A stretch of DNA of 64,000 bases from a virus: positions 1 to 64,000 of the IMG/VR virus record IMGVR_UViG_3300025010_000053, one strand, 5' to 3'. The notes below the pieces were generated by a model, which was not told the DNA's origin, searched no databases, and was given only the letters and a program-made list of their open reading frames with translations. Both the position numbers and the translations under genes were made by a program. Positions 18,162 to 25,084 of this stretch are shown piece by piece. How positions within the stretch are numbered: the stretch's first letter is position 1; every line of letters begins with the position of its first letter.

Positions 18162-18647
18162 ATGTTAACAGCGCAAATCAGTCAAGATTGGCAGAAAAAA
18201 ATGGTCATAGATGCCATTTTAAAAGAATACCCAAAAGCTACAGGATTCCAGTTTTCCTGTGGATTTAATCGTACAGAATGGAATGACAGTCCAAACCTGT
18301 CGCCCTACTTCCATTGTGATTTCATCGAGGAAACCAGCGCATACCAGGCATATGTCCACAAGGACGGTATTGATTTCAACTATCAGGGAGAATTATGCCA
18401 AGAATATCAGGTATCCGGACAGTTTTACTTTCTTACGAAGGAACTTACCTTTCAAGAAATGCTTGTTAATGTAGTCAAAGTCCACGCTGTCGCAGGGTAC
18501 AACGATGGAGGCCACATCCGCCTGATCCATTGGAATATCACGTGTCAGGAGGACTGGAAGCGTTTGAAAAAGCAGTGCCCGAACAGTGAGAAACGCTTGA
18601 TTTTCTACTACCCGGACGGCAAAACAGCAGCAGAGTCGGTCTTTTAG
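18162..18647 (+). CDS. Hypothetical early protein
   Basis: 161 residues from ATG 18162 behind TAGGAGGAATA. Mixed alpha/beta with several cysteines, no signal peptide or membrane segment. Motifs such as 'YQAYVHKDGIDFNYQGELCQEY' and 'GYNDGGHIRLIHWNI' do not point to a family I know. Located immediately before the Csx3-like gene, so a host-interaction role is a reasonable guess only. Confidence 0.65.
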   Translation: MLTAQISQDWQKKMVIDAILKEYPKATGFQFSCGFNRTEWNDSPNLSPYFHCDFIEETSAYQAYVHKDGIDFNYQGELCQEYQVSGQFYFLTKELTFQEMLVNVVKVHAVAGYNDGGHIRLIHWNITCQEDWKRLKKQCPNSEKRLIFYYPDGKTAAESVF

Positions 18648-18711
18648 TTTTCCCAGGCTTGGGGTTAGCCGAAAAAGCCCTGCCAGGAAAAAATAAAAAG
18701 GAGGAATAGTT

Positions 18712-19443
18712 ATGAAATTAAGCGTAAACGACGCTGACGGAACTGCTGTTGTCGCAGTACTGAAGTTGAACGGACAACCTGCTGTAGAGAAAATCGACTA
18801 CATCAATTGGGAAGGACAATACCACAAGAACGGAAAGTGGAGCTATACCGAAGGTGGCGTTTCCCTGTGTGATGGCATTGTCTTAATTAAGCATATGTCT
18901 ACTCACAGCAGTGCCAACAATCTGCGCTATGCCCACATTGTCGCGGATAATGTGGAGGAGGACAGCATATTTGTCATGGGCGTAGTCTCGGAGCAAGACG
19001 AATACCCAAAAATGCCTGCCGGTTTTACTCTTGGATACCATGTCTGGGATGCTATCGTGGAAGGGTTTTTGAACATCCCGAATCCCACAGACAGATTTAA
19101 ACAGAGCGTTGCCGATGCCCGAGCACGCTGGGAACTTGCAGAGCAATTCAATCCCACCAGGCCGATTACAGTAGAAGGTCCCGTATTTTGGAGTATTGGC
19201 GTAGATGGCCCCTGTACACCATCAGATCCGTTGCCAGTCATGCCGGAAATTCCCCGCGGATCCCTGTTGGTCATCGGTGGACGGGCACCTATTTGGAGGT
19301 ATGGCTTAGCCCTACATCAAGCGCACGGATCCGCTGCCGGTGCTGCAGCCACCTTTGATCCAAAGATTGGGGCGGTGGTAGTAGCAACACACAACGCCAA
19401 TTGGAAGGAGAGGCAGATTGTCGCTGTGGACTGGCCGTTTTAG
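18712..19443 (+). CDS. csx3: Csx3-like ring nuclease (candidate type III anti-CRISPR)
   Basis: 243 residues from ATG 18712 (AAAGGAGG upstream). The C-terminal ~65 residues match the CRISPR-associated Csx3 family closely: 'LLVIGGRAPIWRYGLALH' (183-202), His202/His205, 'FDPKIGAVVVATH' with Asp216 and His227. In characterised Csx3 (Crn3), these His/Asp positions hold manganese and the protein degrades the cyclic tetra-adenylate that activates type III CRISPR effectors. Residues 1-150 are an extra N-terminal region I do not recognise. No cas genes are nearby, so in a phage this most likely serves to switch off CRISPR signalling (inference). Confidence 0.85.
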   Translation: MKLSVNDADGTAVVAVLKLNGQPAVEKIDYINWEGQYHKNGKWSYTEGGVSLCDGIVLIKHMSTHSSANNLRYAHIVADNVEEDSIFVMGVVSEQDEYPKMPAGFTLGYHVWDAIVEGFLNIPNPTDRFKQSVADARARWELAEQFNPTRPITVEGPVFWSIGVDGPCTPSDPLPVMPEIPRGSLLVIGGRAPIWRYGLALHQAHGSAAGAAATFDPKIGAVVVATHNANWKERQIVAVDWPF

Positions 19444-19474
19444 TCCGCAAGATTAAGCTAAGGAGGTGATACAT

Positions 19475-19660
19475 ATGATTAATCTAGATATTAAACCCAC
19501 AGAAGAACAATTGGCAAAAGTTCCCGAAACCAAAAAAGCGCTGAATGCTCTTTATGTGGCAATTGAAGCTGAGTTTCCAGTTGGTAGAGAAAAGTCACTT
19601 ATTTTTACCAACCTGGATGTGGCAATATTATGGATTCGTGAGGCCATTATGAAACTTTAG
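19475..19660 (+). CDS. Acb2/Tad1-like hairpin protein (candidate cyclic-nucleotide sponge)
   Basis: 61 residues; ATG 19475 lies eight bases after AAGGAGGTGAT. The C-terminal part 'GREKSLIFTNLDVAILWIREAI' (residues 37-58) follows the hallmark of phage Acb2 and Tad1-type hairpin proteins, where 'sREKSLalT.LeeA..WanaAI' is conserved. Acb2 forms hexamers that bind cyclic di- and trinucleotides and thereby blocks CBASS; Tad1 relatives bind Thoeris signals. It starts 32 bases after the Csx3-like gene. Ligand cannot be inferred from sequence. Confidence 0.75.
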   Translation: MINLDIKPTEEQLAKVPETKKALNALYVAIEAEFPVGREKSLIFTNLDVAILWIREAIMKL

Positions 19661-19726
19661 TCTACTATCTCTGCCCGTTTAGATACGGGCGGGGGTGGTG
19701 GGATTGAAAATAGGGGAGGGGTAATT

Positions 19727-20584
19727 ATGAATTTTGATGAATTATGTGTCAGGGTATTCGCTGGTTTTGAAGCCGGAGAAGTCCACTACTACATCAACGA
19801 ATGCTTCAGAGAAAGAGGATTTGGGAGAGATAGTGTTGAACAGATCCTCAAAAATTACGGTTTTGAGTTCAACTTGGATGATACAGATGTATATGAAAAA
19901 ATTTGTGAAGTTTCAAAAGGATTGTTCGTTGAGTTGGCACCCTTTGAAGAGCTTCGCAAAAAGGTGTATGAAGGATATCGAACAGGTAAAGTACACCACT
20001 ATTTTACTAATTCTTTCGGTCATTATTACTCCAAAAAAACCGTCATAAGCCACTTAAACCGCTATGGCATTCCTGTCGATTTGGACGCTCAGGATGCTTA
20101 CGAGCAGATTTTAAAACTGTCCATACCGTTGTTTTTGGAGTCAAAAGGGCTCCACTTAGGCAAGAATACTTTCAAGCTTGATGACGGAAAGTATCTCGTT
20201 AACGACGGCGGCAAGTACAGGCCCAATCTGTCTCTAATTTTCACTGAGGACAGGTTGTTAAAAGCATTTGATTATGCAGCCGATACCGAACTTCAAGGCA
20301 GTCTTAATGTCTCTTTTTCTGGCAACATGGGGTTTAAGTTTGGTCGTTTCTTTAAGAGCAAGAAAGGCACTAACTGCTTTGAGGAAATGGATCGCGATAA
20401 AGCCCCGCATATGCTCATCAAAATAAATTGGGGCGGTGCTTTTGATAGTTCGCGTGGGTTTAGAAGTTGGCCCGAAGGAAGTCTATACCGTCGCGTTGCC
20501 AAATCAAATGGCGGCGGAGCTGGCAATGACTACCTTGTACTGCCGATTAATTTTAAGCAGACCTTAAGGTTTGGGGATATTTAA
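19727..20584 (+). CDS. Hypothetical protein with internal duplication
   Basis: 285 residues from ATG 19727 behind AGGGGAGGGG. Residues ~2-70 and ~77-145 are two diverged copies of one unit: 'FDELCVRVFAGFEAGEVHYYIN' versus 'FEELRKKVYEGYRTGKVHHYFT', each ending in 'D..DvYE.I...s..LF.E'. The C-terminal ~130 residues, rich in Gly and aromatic residues ('NVSFSGNMGFKFGRFF'), form a separate domain. No family recognised. Position next to the Csx3 and Acb2-like genes makes it a candidate host-interaction protein. Confidence 0.65.
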   Translation: MNFDELCVRVFAGFEAGEVHYYINECFRERGFGRDSVEQILKNYGFEFNLDDTDVYEKICEVSKGLFVELAPFEELRKKVYEGYRTGKVHHYFTNSFGHYYSKKTVISHLNRYGIPVDLDAQDAYEQILKLSIPLFLESKGLHLGKNTFKLDDGKYLVNDGGKYRPNLSLIFTEDRLLKAFDYAADTELQGSLNVSFSGNMGFKFGRFFKSKKGTNCFEEMDRDKAPHMLIKINWGGAFDSSRGFRSWPEGSLYRRVAKSNGGGAGNDYLVLPINFKQTLRFGDI

Positions 20585-20611
20585 TCTTAGAGTTCGTTGG
20601 AGGTGTCAAGC

Positions 20612-21748
20612 ATGGCCCAATACAACGTTACCCGTGCTTGCGGGCATGAGGAAACAGTTAACCTTATTGGTAAGCACAAACTACGGGAGTGGCGACTGGA
20701 GAACGTCGAACCAAACAAGTTATGCCACACCTGTTACCATGCGGAACTTGAACGCCAGCGTGAAAAGGCCACCGCCGAAGCTATCGAGGCAGCGAAAGAA
20801 ATGGAGTTGCCAGCACTCGATGGAACTGAAAAACAAGTGGCCTGGGCAGAGCGAATACGCCAGGAGATATTGCTCCGGGCAGAAGGATTCCTGCATGGAA
20901 ATATCACCGATGAGCAACGCGCTGATCTAATGACCGGACTTGACCACCTACAACAGATCGAGTCAGCGAGTTGGTGGATTGACCGCCGTGATATGTCATT
21001 GCGGATGCTTGAAACTCTACTGCTCAACACTGCCAAACAGCAGAAGGATAAGCCGCCACAGGTGCTTACCGACGCTGTTAAAATAGAGGCGACTGTCAGG
21101 CCTGAAAACACCGTCACCGAAACTGTAGCGGAAATCCGAGCACTTGAAAAAAGCATGGAAATATATTTTCCCGAGAAGCGCGACGACTTTCGGGAAATTG
21201 TAAAGGAAAAATTGAGTATGGATTGGACCGGGCTGTGCTGGAGAAGAAAAATAGCGAAGCACAACGGCACTCCGGCAGATCGTGCATCTGAGGCAGGGCA
21301 CAGACTGCTTGCTGCTGGGTTCCCTGTTAGAATCTTTGACGATGAGACACGGCAGAAGGCCATCGACGGCACATATGAGCCAGAGCATACCCGCTGGATT
21401 ATGTGCCGCACTACAGGCGGTTATGCTGGTCACCTAGTGGTACGGTGGAGCAAGAAAGAAGACTTCTACCGTGCTGCAAAGGGTATTAACGGTAGTCGAT
21501 ATGACAAACCCGATGTTGTGGTTCCCCCCGAGCATTTTGCCGAGGTACTGGACTTCGCACAAATGTATGACTTTAGGATCTCGTCAGGTGCGCAGAAGGC
21601 AATAGATTTAGCACGGCAGGCATGGGAGAGCATACTTACCGTAATTGTCGCGCCGCCAGCGGAAAAAGATTGCGTGGTTGCCATCGGCAAGCCTCCCGTC
21701 TTGGAGGTTCCTATTGATATGAATATTGCAGATGAATTTAGGGATTAG
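20612..21748 (+). CDS. Hypothetical protein with N-terminal zinc motif
   Basis: 378 residues from ATG 20612 (TGGAGGTG upstream; the longer GTG frame has no RBS). The first ~45 residues hold a likely zinc site 'ACGHEE ... CHTCYHAE'. Then comes a long charged helix. The C-terminal part ('SRYDKPDVVVPPEHFAEVLDFAQMY') reads as an alpha/beta domain. I do not recognise the family, although proteins with this zinc opening occur in other Gram-positive mobile elements. It precedes the SNF2 helicase and may be a partner. Confidence 0.65.
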   Translation: MAQYNVTRACGHEETVNLIGKHKLREWRLENVEPNKLCHTCYHAELERQREKATAEAIEAAKEMELPALDGTEKQVAWAERIRQEILLRAEGFLHGNITDEQRADLMTGLDHLQQIESASWWIDRRDMSLRMLETLLLNTAKQQKDKPPQVLTDAVKIEATVRPENTVTETVAEIRALEKSMEIYFPEKRDDFREIVKEKLSMDWTGLCWRRKIAKHNGTPADRASEAGHRLLAAGFPVRIFDDETRQKAIDGTYEPEHTRWIMCRTTGGYAGHLVVRWSKKEDFYRAAKGINGSRYDKPDVVVPPEHFAEVLDFAQMYDFRISSGAQKAIDLARQAWESILTVIVAPPAEKDCVVAIGKPPVLEVPIDMNIADEFRD

Positions 21749-21760
21749 GAGGGGTAAGTC

Positions 21761-21961
21761 ATGCTCATAAAAGAAGACGGCGGACTTTATGACGCGCACG
21801 AAGAGTGCAATTTAGCTAAAACCTGCGATAAATACAAAACCGTCGGTAAATTTAGCGGTTGTCAGAACATCGGAAGAATAGGAGTCACCTGCTTTTGCTT
21901 AATTAGACCAGATCACCCTCGTATCAAACTTGATCTGGTCTATGTTAAGTGTGAATCTTAG
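21761..21961 (+). CDS. Small Cys-rich protein
   Basis: 66 residues from ATG 21761 with AGGAGGGG upstream. Six cysteines ('EECNLAKTCDKY', 'SGCQN', 'VTCFC', 'KCES') suggest metal binding. Its 3' end carries an 11-bp inverted repeat and overlaps the start of the SNF2 helicase gene by 20 bases, so translation of the two is probably coupled. Confidence 0.65.
   Translation: MLIKEDGGLYDAHEECNLAKTCDKYKTVGKFSGCQNIGRIGVTCFCLIRPDHPRIKLDLVYVKCES
21905..21941 (+). promoter_or_regulatory. Perfect 11-bp inverted repeat at the helicase start
   Basis: AGACCAGATCA and TGATCTGGTCT are exact reverse complements with a 15-base loop. The hairpin ends immediately before ATG 21942, where no Shine-Dalgarno sequence is visible. 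It could gate translation of the helicase or serve as a protein-binding operator. Confidence 0.6.
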
Positions 21962-23366
21962 AACCGAACTGTTGCCGCACCAAGTACCTGCTGTTGAGAA
22001 AGTGCTGCCGTCTCGTATTGGCGGTCTATTCTGCGACATGGGTACTGGCAAAACGCGCATGTCAATTGAACTGGTTGACCGACGCAAAACCAAAATTGAC
22101 AAGGTAATCTGGTTTTGCCCGGTTAGCCTAAAGGAAACGGTCAGACAGGAGATACTCAAGCATACTGACTGTATAGACAGTGACATTTGCGTATTTGGAG
22201 ACAGGACAAATGAGAGCAACGTCCCAAGCGTGCCTTGGTATGTTGTAGGGATTGAGTCAATGAGTAGCAGTACCCGCGTGGTCTTGACTGTAAATAAGCT
22301 TATTACCGAGAGTACGATGGTTATCTTGGACGAATCGTCATACATCAAGGGTCACCGCTCAATGCGGACGTTGCGGATTACGGAATTATGCAAACGCGCA
22401 CGGTACCGACTCATCTTAACCGGTACTCCGCTGTCTCAGGGAGTAGTTGATCTATTTGCGCAAATGCGTTTTTTATCTCCCAAGATTTTGGGTTACGAGT
22501 CGTTTTACTCTTTCGCGGCGAATCACCTGGAGTATTCGGAAAAGTATCCGGGCATGATTGTTCGTGCTCACAATGTTGAGTACCTGGCCGCGAAAATAAA
22601 ACCTTACATTTACCAGGTTACTAAGGAGGAATGCCTTGATCTTCCGTCGAAACTTTACGAAACTAGGTATTTCAGTATGAGTTACGAACAGCGGCAGCAT
22701 TATGAGTGGGCAAAGGAGGAAATCCTTGCCGATCTCCTGGAGGACGATGACGATTCTATTCCGATCTTTAGACTGTTCACTGCTCTGCAGGGTATCGTCT
22801 GCGGGTTTTGGAATCGGAGGATTAGTCGGGGTCATTATCAGAAAATGAGGTTTGAGCATGACCGGGTGAGCACCTTACTCGAAACGATCTATAGCGTACC
22901 GCGTGACACAAGATTTATTATTTGGGCAAAATATACATATGACATCCAACAGATCGCCGATATGCTGCAGGCCAATTTTGCCGACCAGGGGTTTAGTTTG
23001 TATCATGGTGGGTTATCAGAAAAGCAACGTAACGCCGAAGAAGCTAGATTTCATGCCGGAAATAGATTCTTTGTTGGTACCGCCAAGACCGGCGGGCATG
23101 GACTAACCTTAAATGAGGCACATTATACTATTTTCTATAATAACTCGTTTAAATACAGCGAACGACTGCAGTCGGAAGATCGGAATCACCGGATTGGCCA
23201 GACCAATAAGGTAACCTATATTGATATTCGCTGTTCGAACAGTATTGACGAAAGAATCGCTGAAAACTTAGCCCAAAAGGGCAATACTGTAAATAGTTTC
23301 CGGAGGGAGGTTGAAAAGGTCAAATATAAAAAAGACCGTCTAAAGGAGTTGATTATGTCGCTGTGA
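21942..23366 (+). CDS. SNF2-family (superfamily 2) helicase
   Basis: 474 residues from ATG 21942; TTG 21930 is also possible. Motif I 'DMGTGKTRMS', motif II 'ILDESSYIKG' (DEAH variant DESS), motif III 'LILTGTPLSQG', motif V 'KTGGHGLTLNEAHY', motif VI 'QSEDRNHRIGQ'. The 'SEDRNHRIGQ' signature places it in the SNF2 group, with the short single-subunit form common in phages. Likely role: translocation on DNA during replication or recombination. Its 3' end overlaps the DUF3440 gene by four bases. Confidence 0.88.
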   Translation: MLSVNLRTELLPHQVPAVEKVLPSRIGGLFCDMGTGKTRMSIELVDRRKTKIDKVIWFCPVSLKETVRQEILKHTDCIDSDICVFGDRTNESNVPSVPWYVVGIESMSSSTRVVLTVNKLITESTMVILDESSYIKGHRSMRTLRITELCKRARYRLILTGTPLSQGVVDLFAQMRFLSPKILGYESFYSFAANHLEYSEKYPGMIVRAHNVEYLAAKIKPYIYQVTKEECLDLPSKLYETRYFSMSYEQRQHYEWAKEEILADLLEDDDDSIPIFRLFTALQGIVCGFWNRRISRGHYQKMRFEHDRVSTLLETIYSVPRDTRFIIWAKYTYDIQQIADMLQANFADQGFSLYHGGLSEKQRNAEEARFHAGNRFFVGTAKTGGHGLTLNEAHYTIFYNNSFKYSERLQSEDRNHRIGQTNKVTYIDIRCSNSIDERIAENLAQKGNTVNSFRREVEKVKYKKDRLKELIMSL

Positions 23367-24658
23367 GTAAGAAAAAGTATCTCAAAAAGAACGTGTATGA
23401 AGCAGCACTGGAACGCGTCAAAACTATTTTCGAAGAGTTCGAAAAGGTGTATGTTTCCTTTTCCGGCGGCAAGGACAGCGGGGTTGTTTTGAACCTTGTC
23501 CTTGATTATATGCGTAAAAACGGGATAACGAATAAAATCGGGGTTCTTGTTGTTGATCTGGAAGGTCAGTATCAAGAAACCATAAATTACATACATACCA
23601 TGCTTACGGACAATGCTGACTTGATAGAACCATACTGGGCATGCTTGCCGCTAAATCTGCGCAATGCTGTGTCAGTCTATCAGCCGTTCTGGTGTTGCTG
23701 GGAGCCAGGACTAGAAGATAGATGGATTAGGCAATTTCCTGACTATCCGGTTATAAAAGATCAGGAATTCTTTCCGTTCTATCAGTACAGAATGGAATTT
23801 GAAGAATTCGTTCCGAAGTTCGGCAAGTGGTTTTCTGGTGGAGAAAAGACTGCTTGCCTGGTAGGCATACGTTCCGATGAAAGCCTTAACCGATTCAGAA
23901 CAATTGTAAGCGACAGTAAAGAGACTTATAGCGGCATAAACTGGACAACGAAGATAGACGAGAATCTTTACAATTGCTATCCAATTTACGATTGGCGAAC
24001 TGAAGATATTTGGACCGCCAATGGTAAAAACGGGTGGGAATATAACAAACTCTATGATCTGTTTTACAAGGCCGGTGTCGGCATCCACGATATGCGGATT
24101 TGCCAGCCCTATGGTGATGACCAACGGATCGGGCTGAATCTGTTCCGGGTTATCGAACCCGAGACATGGGCCAGGGTAGTTAATCGTGTATCCGGGGCAA
24201 ACTTTGGTAATATTTATTGTGGTACTAAGGCATTAGGGTATCGTCAGGTACAGCTACCGGCCGGGCATACGTGGAAAAGCTACACAAAGCTTTTACTTGC
24301 ATCACTTCCACCCGAAACCAGGGAGAACTATGTTAGCCGGTTTATCCGTTTTATGAGATATTGGAATAGAAACGGGTGTGGGTTGCCAAGTGAATGCTTT
24401 AGCAAACTGCCCCCTTCCGCTGTTGTAACGGATAAGATAGCTACCAGAGGGAATAAGGATAAACGTGTCGTTAGGTACAGGAAAATAGAAGATAGCCTTG
24501 ACGGCGATATTGAAAGCAAACACTATGCTCCTACTTGGCGTAGGATGGCCATGTGCATCCTTAAAAATGACCACCTGTGCAAAGGATTGTCGTTTGCCCA
24601 AATCAAGAACCAGGCAGAGCGGCAACGACAGCTGATAGAAAAGTACCGAAATTTGTAG
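23363..24658 (+). CDS. IbrA-like PAPS-reductase-family protein (DUF3440)
   Basis: 431 residues from GTG 23363, overlapping the helicase stop. The PP-loop 'VSFSGGKDSGVVLNL' (residues ~31-45) binds ATP or PAPS. Downstream 'CCWEPGLEDRWIRQ', 'WFSGGEKTACLVGIRSDESLNRF' and 'YDWRTEDIWTANGKNGW' are hallmarks of DUF3440, the IbrA family. Together with the ParB-like gene at 25071 it forms the conserved IbrA-IbrB pair described in E. coli as regulators; the biochemical reaction is not established. Confidence 0.85.
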   Translation: MSKKKYLKKNVYEAALERVKTIFEEFEKVYVSFSGGKDSGVVLNLVLDYMRKNGITNKIGVLVVDLEGQYQETINYIHTMLTDNADLIEPYWACLPLNLRNAVSVYQPFWCCWEPGLEDRWIRQFPDYPVIKDQEFFPFYQYRMEFEEFVPKFGKWFSGGEKTACLVGIRSDESLNRFRTIVSDSKETYSGINWTTKIDENLYNCYPIYDWRTEDIWTANGKNGWEYNKLYDLFYKAGVGIHDMRICQPYGDDQRIGLNLFRVIEPETWARVVNRVSGANFGNIYCGTKALGYRQVQLPAGHTWKSYTKLLLASLPPETRENYVSRFIRFMRYWNRNGCGLPSECFSKLPPSAVVTDKIATRGNKDKRVVRYRKIEDSLDGDIESKHYAPTWRRMAMCILKNDHLCKGLSFAQIKNQAERQRQLIEKYRNL

Positions 24659-24670
24659 GGGGTACCGTCC

Positions 24671-25084
24671 ATGAAGATAATTAGACTAACAAACCAGGAC
24701 AAAAGCTTTTACTCCACACTGGGGCCGTTTCTGGCCCGTCGTGACGTTGAGCGCGAAATTGGCTACAAGATATACGACGATGACGGAAAAGTGTGGATTA
24801 CTGCTCTTGAATTAAAAAAGGTCGTGGGGTTTTGTTATCTTTGGGAGAAAACAAAAGCACATTATCAGATCGGTAGTTGCTATGTCGTTGAAAAGTACCG
24901 GCAACAAGGTGTTTTTCGCCAGCTATTTAACAGTGCAATTAAGGATATTAAAGGCGTTGTTACTATGACAACGAAGAATAAATATTTAATGGAAATGATA
25001 GCTGATGAAGGTTTTATGGAGAGTAAGAAGAGAGGTAGCTTTACTGAGTATGCAAAGGAGTATGGTTCAAATGAAAGCGTTTAA
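24671..25084 (+). CDS. GNAT-fold acetyltransferase-like protein
   Basis: 137 residues from ATG 24671 (GGGGGTACC upstream). Residues ~68-95 contain the GNAT motif A region: 'IGSCYVVEKYRQQGVFRQLFNSAI', in the pattern Q/R-x-x-G-x-G/A loosened to 'RQQGVF'. It lies between IbrA- and IbrB-like genes and overlaps the latter by 14 bases. It could acetylate a protein, or, like phage Mu Mom, a DNA base; the sequence alone does not decide. Confidence 0.65.
   Translation: MKIIRLTNQDKSFYSTLGPFLARRDVEREIGYKIYDDDGKVWITALELKKVVGFCYLWEKTKAHYQIGSCYVVEKYRQQGVFRQLFNSAIKDIKGVVTMTTKNKYLMEMIADEGFMESKKRGSFTEYAKEYGSNESV

What the first reader, a model, noticed from the sequence alone, without database searches (positions are those of the whole stretch)
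19475..19660. Acb2/Tad1-like sponge next to the ring nuclease
A 61-residue protein carries the GREKSL..T.L..A..W...AI pattern of Acb2/Tad1 hairpin proteins that sequester cyclic nucleotides in CBASS and Thoeris. Its gene follows the Csx3-like gene by 32 bases. Acb2 homologues bind some cyclic trinucleotides made by type III CRISPR as well.
Basis: partly seen in the sequence, partly recalled or inferred. Interest (0 to 1): 0.8.

Follow-up and report, generated by a model that had tools for sequence, protein, structure and literature searches.

The report
Small Acb2/Tad1-type hairpin beside ring nuclease
A phage gene for a 61-residue protein belongs to the family that soaks up bacterial alarm molecules; it lacks the N-terminal aromatic that all sampled relatives have, and it sits next to a gene whose family breaks down a CRISPR alarm molecule.

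Summary
It is homologous to the Acb2/Tad1 hairpin family: Pfam PF24729 E=3.4e-5 (below the curated cut-off); a profile built only from phage relatives gives 49 bits versus 9.8 for the best of 5000 shuffles. Profiles of the set find solved Acb2 homolog 43, Tad1 and T4 Vs.4 by sequence. AlphaFold2 gives a confident two-helix hairpin.

All 78 relatives alignable there carry an aromatic in the N-terminal FxYH-type motif; T4 Y8, needed for ligand binding, lies in it. The window protein has none. It keeps the hairpin signature, including the T equivalent to T4 T68. It is a divergent, nearly hairpin-only member, not a demonstrated Acb2.

The neighbour does carry a Csx3/Crn3 domain with its catalytic residues (R71 to K). 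Only one other contig has both genes, identical there; six other Csx3-bearing viral contigs lack the hairpin gene. The pairing is suggestive, not a conserved operon. Best guess: a sponge for cyclic trinucleotides (cA3-like), complementing cA4 cleavage. No ligand binding is shown.

The parts
19475..19660 (+). 61-aa Acb2/Tad1-hairpin family gene (candidate cyclic-nucleotide sponge)
   Evidence: PF24729 E=3.4e-5, below cut-off; relatives-only HMM 49.1 bits; AF2 hairpin H10-33/H38-60, pLDDT 89
19460..19469 (+). Shine-Dalgarno AAGGAGGTGA, full 10-base match; its GGAGG core ends 8 bases before the ATG
   Evidence: sequence
19583..19648 (+). signature GREKSLIFTNLDVAILWIREAI (residues 37-58); R38, T45 and W53 are nearly invariant in the family; T45 aligns with T4 Vs.4 T68
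   Evidence: T68M lowers T4 Acb2 affinity (PMC12657230)
19475..19501 (+). shortened N-terminus MINLDIKPT in place of the family's FxYH-type motif; no aromatic residue before Y27
   Evidence: 78 of 78 alignable relatives have an aromatic here
18712..19443 (+). 243-aa protein with a C-terminal Csx3/Crn3 ring-nuclease-type domain and an N-terminal part of unknown fold
   Evidence: PF09620 5.2e-14, TIGR02579 7.3e-12 below cut-off, PDB AfCsx3 by sequence and by fold E 6e-5
19177..19440 (+). Csx3 domain (residues 156-243); H202, H205, D216, K218, H227 correspond to AfCsx3 H57, H60, D69, R71, H80
   Evidence: alignment; residue roles from PMC7371418

Best explanation
A phage counter-defence protein of the Acb2/Tad1 hairpin family. 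It folds as a two-helix hairpin (model), is inferred to assemble into an oligomer as its relatives do, and to inactivate an immune second messenger by binding rather than cutting it. The shared hairpin, which in Acb2 and Tad1 builds the trimer-interface trinucleotide site, is kept, while the N-terminal aromatic of the Acb2 dinucleotide pocket is lost; so the likeliest ligand class is a cyclic trinucleotide such as cA3. The adjacent Csx3-domain protein would remove cA4, so the pair could blunt type III CRISPR (or CBASS plus CRISPR) signalling. Shown: homology, modelled fold, gene adjacency, retained and lost residues. Inferred: oligomer, ligand, sponge action, cooperation with the neighbour.
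For: Family homology. Hairpin model. Retained signature residues including the T4 T68 equivalent: with PMC12657230. Loss of the N-terminal aromatic. Acb2 and Tad1 bind trinucleotides at the hexamer's trimer interfaces, apart from the dinucleotide pockets (PMC12043709). Csx3 neighbour with catalytic H57, H60, D69 and H80 equivalents. Strong ribosome-binding site, fitting a protein needed in stoichiometric amounts.
Against: No ligand binding, oligomer or activity is shown. Pfam score is below the curated cut-off. The fold search was not significant (best hit Vs.4, E=3.1), as expected for a short hairpin. The typical ANAAI segment has become IREAI. The pairing is not recurrent: six other Csx3-bearing viral contigs and a Csx3-bearing plasmid have no family member, and 48 sampled viral records with hairpin relatives have no Csx3. 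Host and its defences are unknown.
Confidence: 0.45

Rival explanations
1. A canonical Acb2-type sponge binding cyclic dinucleotides (anti-CBASS), with the missing aromatic replaced by another residue.
For: Same family as Acb2 homolog 43 and T4 Vs.4.
Against: T4 Y8A is binding-deficient (PMC12657230); the window protein has no aromatic in its first 26 residues, unlike all 78 alignable relatives.
Confidence: 0.15
2. A divergent hairpin-family protein with a different ligand (for example cA4 or a TIR-derived signal) or a wholly different role that kept the fold.
For: Changes at family-typical positions (FxYH lost, ANAAI to IREAI). Relatives lie in varied contexts, such as next to terminase or lysis genes, and most are not tested.
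Against: The RE..L..T.L..W..AI core is kept, and a second-messenger enzyme family member lies next door.
Confidence: 0.3
3. A decaying remnant of an Acb2 gene that has lost its N-terminal motif and no longer works.
For: Short N-terminus; the only second copy is nucleotide-identical over the whole surrounding 7 kb, so purifying selection cannot be measured.
Against: Intact ORF, perfect Shine-Dalgarno, complete hairpin signature.
Confidence: 0.1

Closest known systems
Acb2 (phage T4 Vs.4, PDB 7uq2; Acb2 homolog 43, PDB 9ptq)
   Same: Helical hairpin with the conserved C-terminal signature; T45 aligns with T4 T68, W53 with T4 W76.
   Different: No N-terminal aromatic (T4 Y8); 61 aa rather than 76-89; ANAAI segment altered.
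Tad1 (Thoeris anti-defence 1; PDB 7uav, 8kbb-8kbh)
   Same: Shares the C-terminal hairpin with the RE...T..E..W pattern.
   Different: Tad1 is about 125-138 aa with an N-terminal beta-sheet domain that helps form the gcADPR pocket (PMC12043709); that domain is absent here.
PF24729 members in tailed phages (phrog_1454 and others, unknown function)
   Same: Same fold and signature, 30-38% identity over the domain.
   Different: All 78 alignable relatives keep an aromatic in the N-terminal motif.
Crn3/Csx3 ring nuclease (neighbour gene)
   Same: Domain homology, fold and catalytic residues.
   Different: Fused to a 155-aa N-terminal part of unknown fold; R71 is K, which also occurs in some cellular Csx3 relatives.

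Membership tests
Acb2/Tad1 hairpin family (PF24729) | sequence match to the family profile | tested here: met
   E=3.4e-5 but 24.4 bits against a cut-off of 27; relatives-only HMM 49.1 bits, E=3e-14 in the window
Acb2/Tad1 hairpin family (PF24729) | two long antiparallel helices | tested here: met
   AF2 H10-33 and H38-60, mean pLDDT 89
Acb2/Tad1 hairpin family (PF24729) | significant fold match to solved members | tested here: inconclusive
   best Foldseek hit is Vs.4 but E=3.1
Acb2 | N-terminal aromatic required for ligand binding (T4 Y8) | tested here: not met
   no F/Y/W/H before Y27; 78 of 78 alignable relatives have one; Y8A binding-deficient in PMC12657230
Acb2 | conserved C-terminal signature with T equivalent to T4 T68 | tested here: met
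   R38, T45, W53, A57 and I58 present
Acb2 | homohexamer with three dinucleotide and two trinucleotide sites | not testable with these tools
   only monomers can be modelled
Acb2 | binds cyclic nucleotides and protects phage from CBASS | not testable with these tools
   needs protein and phage assays
Tad1 | N-terminal beta domain forming the gcADPR pocket | tested here: not met
   only 9 residues precede helix 1 in the model
Crn3/Csx3 (neighbour) | Csx3 domain with H57, H60, D69, R71, H80 | tested here: met
   all kept except R71 to K (residue roles); K also seen in L183, L200 and L209

The most novel reading that the evidence does not exclude
A minimal, nearly hairpin-only Acb2/Tad1 sponge that has lost the dinucleotide site and is dedicated to cyclic trinucleotides, encoded beside a phage Crn3 fusion, so that one locus removes cA3 by sequestration and cA4 by hydrolysis to disarm type III CRISPR signalling.
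Probability: 0.22. Interest if true: 0.75.

Novelty: new variant of a known kind. Interest (0 to 1): 0.45.

Why it matters
If it binds trinucleotides only, it would show that the shared Acb2/Tad1 hairpin alone is enough for a sponge and would separate the two ligand sites by natural variation. Beside a phage-borne Crn3, it would be a candidate two-pronged block of cyclic oligoadenylate signalling. A survey of ring nucleases in 28,114 phage genomes names only AcrIII-1, Csx20 and Csx16 as found in phages (PMC12409355), so viral Csx3 domains are themselves notable.

Tried and rejected
Searched for a recurrent Csx3-hairpin pair: six further viral contigs with Csx3 (L171, L172, L224, L225, L226, L228) and a Csx3-bearing Pyramidobacter plasmid have no hairpin-family member; 48 sampled viral records with hairpin relatives have no Csx3, the two positives in that search being the near-identical contig and L171, and none of the 50 has an AcrIII-1-type protein PF08960. 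phmmer of the single 61-aa sequence against PDB found nothing; only profiles did. Foldseek was not discriminating for a short hairpin. The Csx3-like protein has no match among INPHARED phages, and a genome scan with its full-length peptides found nothing. The N-terminal 155 residues of the Csx3-like protein modelled poorly. No close DNA relative among phage records, so the host was not identified. The second contig is nucleotide-identical over the region, so selection could not be tested. The RNA around the start shows no unusual structure (z 0.76). The primary Acb2 structure papers were not held, so trinucleotide-site residues could not be mapped one by one.

Full report
Observation. The window is part of a 70,537-base virus record. 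At 19475-19660 on the + strand an ATG-started ORF encodes 61 aa, preceded by a full AAGGAGGTGA at 19460-19469 and following a 243-aa gene (18712-19443) by 31 bases.

Homology. Pfam's Acb2_Tad1_hairpin is the only hit (E=3.4e-5, 24.4 bits, below the gathering score of 27); PHROGs gives unknown-function phage families. Weak tblastn matches in Microbacterium, Paenibacillus, Mycobacterium and Gordonia phages were aligned as A1. That profile finds PDB Acb2 homolog 43 (1.4e-8), Tad1 (3e-4) and T4 Vs.4 (0.018). A wider set from IMG/VR gave A2, which finds Acb2 homolog 43 at 1.1e-11, Tad1 at 1.5e-4 and Vs.4 at 0.002. A1 and A2 contain the window protein, so the cleaner test is the HMM built without it: 49.1 bits, E=3e-14 among 1087 window ORFs, next best 6.1 bits, best of 5000 shuffles 9.8 bits. 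The homology is secure.

Fold. AlphaFold2 on A2 gives helices 10-33 and 38-60 with mean pLDDT 89. Foldseek's best PDB hit is Vs.4, but with E=3.1; a short hairpin is not discriminating. The oligomer could not be modelled.

Residues. In a model-based alignment of 83 distinct family sequences, 78 have letters at the FxYH-type motif, and all 78 have an aromatic (F, Y, W or H) there, 72 of them at both positions. The window protein reads MINLDIKPTEEQLAKVPETKKALNALY: no aromatic before Y27, and the reading frame has no room for the motif upstream. hhalign places T4 Vs.4 GYKPHTEEK against its LDIKPTEEQ. T4 Acb2 Y8A is binding-deficient and T68M lowers affinity (PMC12657230). T68 aligns with T45, which is kept, as are R38, E39, W53, A57 and I58. 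The usual ANAAI has become IREAI. Review text states that Acb2 and Tad1 bind trinucleotides at trimer interfaces of the hexamer, apart from the dinucleotide or gcADPR pockets (PMC12043709). From this I infer, without demonstration, that a hairpin without the N-terminal motif could retain the trinucleotide site.

Neighbour. The upstream protein has a C-terminal Csx3 domain: PF09620 5.2e-14, PADLOC Csx3 2e-18, AfCsx3 by sequence and by fold (E 6e-5; the domain is modelled at pLDDT above 90). The residues equivalent to H57, H60, D69 and H80 are kept; R71 is K218, a change also seen in some cellular relatives (L183, L200, L209). Crn3 cleaves cA4 (PMC7371418). The first 155 residues have no recognised homologue and were not modelled with confidence.

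Is the pair a unit? Only one other contig, IMGVR_UViG_3300001041_001615, carries both genes, and it is nucleotide-identical from 18162 to 25084, so it is not independent evidence. Six other viral contigs carry stand-alone Csx3 and a Pyramidobacter plasmid record with phage-like genes carries another; none has a hairpin-family protein. Among sampled viral records with hairpin relatives none of 48 has Csx3. Adjacency is therefore suggestive and post hoc, not a conserved association.

Verdict. The protein is a divergent, nearly hairpin-only member of the Acb2/Tad1 hairpin family, failing one tested feature of Acb2 proper. Sponge action is likely by family, the ligand is open, and trinucleotides are the best guess. 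Cooperation with the Csx3-domain protein against type III CRISPR is plausible and untested.

Noticed in passing
L171:3506-3775, L172:471-746, L224:2842-3108, L225:5989-6267, L226:5992-6276, L228:1888-2090: Six further IMG/VR viral contigs encode stand-alone Csx3/Crn3-like proteins (L228's reading frame is interrupted); tblastn with the window protein found none in INPHARED phages.
   Followed up: partly
window:18712-19176: The Csx3-domain protein carries a 155-residue N-terminal part with no Pfam, PHROG or PDB match and no confident model.
   Followed up: partly
L093:6603-6887 (NZ_CP133039.1): A record deposited as a Pyramidobacter plasmid carries crn3 among phage-like genes (integrase, LexA-type repressor, Rha, DNA polymerase).
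   Followed up: partly
window:23363-25580: DUF3440/PAPS-reductase protein (best phage matches annotated IbrA), a GNAT acetyltransferase and, by eye, a ParB-like protein lie in sequence downstream, after an SNF2-type helicase (21930-23366).
   Followed up: partly
window:19727-20584: The next gene downstream encodes a 285-aa protein whose N-terminal half looks like two similar copies of about 65 residues; no family match.
   Followed up: no
L065:3040-4084: One viral contig encodes two different hairpin-family proteins within about 1 kb of each other.
   Followed up: no
L224:4452-5321: Downstream of a viral Csx3 gene lies a protein that by eye looks like a DHH-family phosphoesterase; it might act on linear oligoadenylates.
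   Followed up: no
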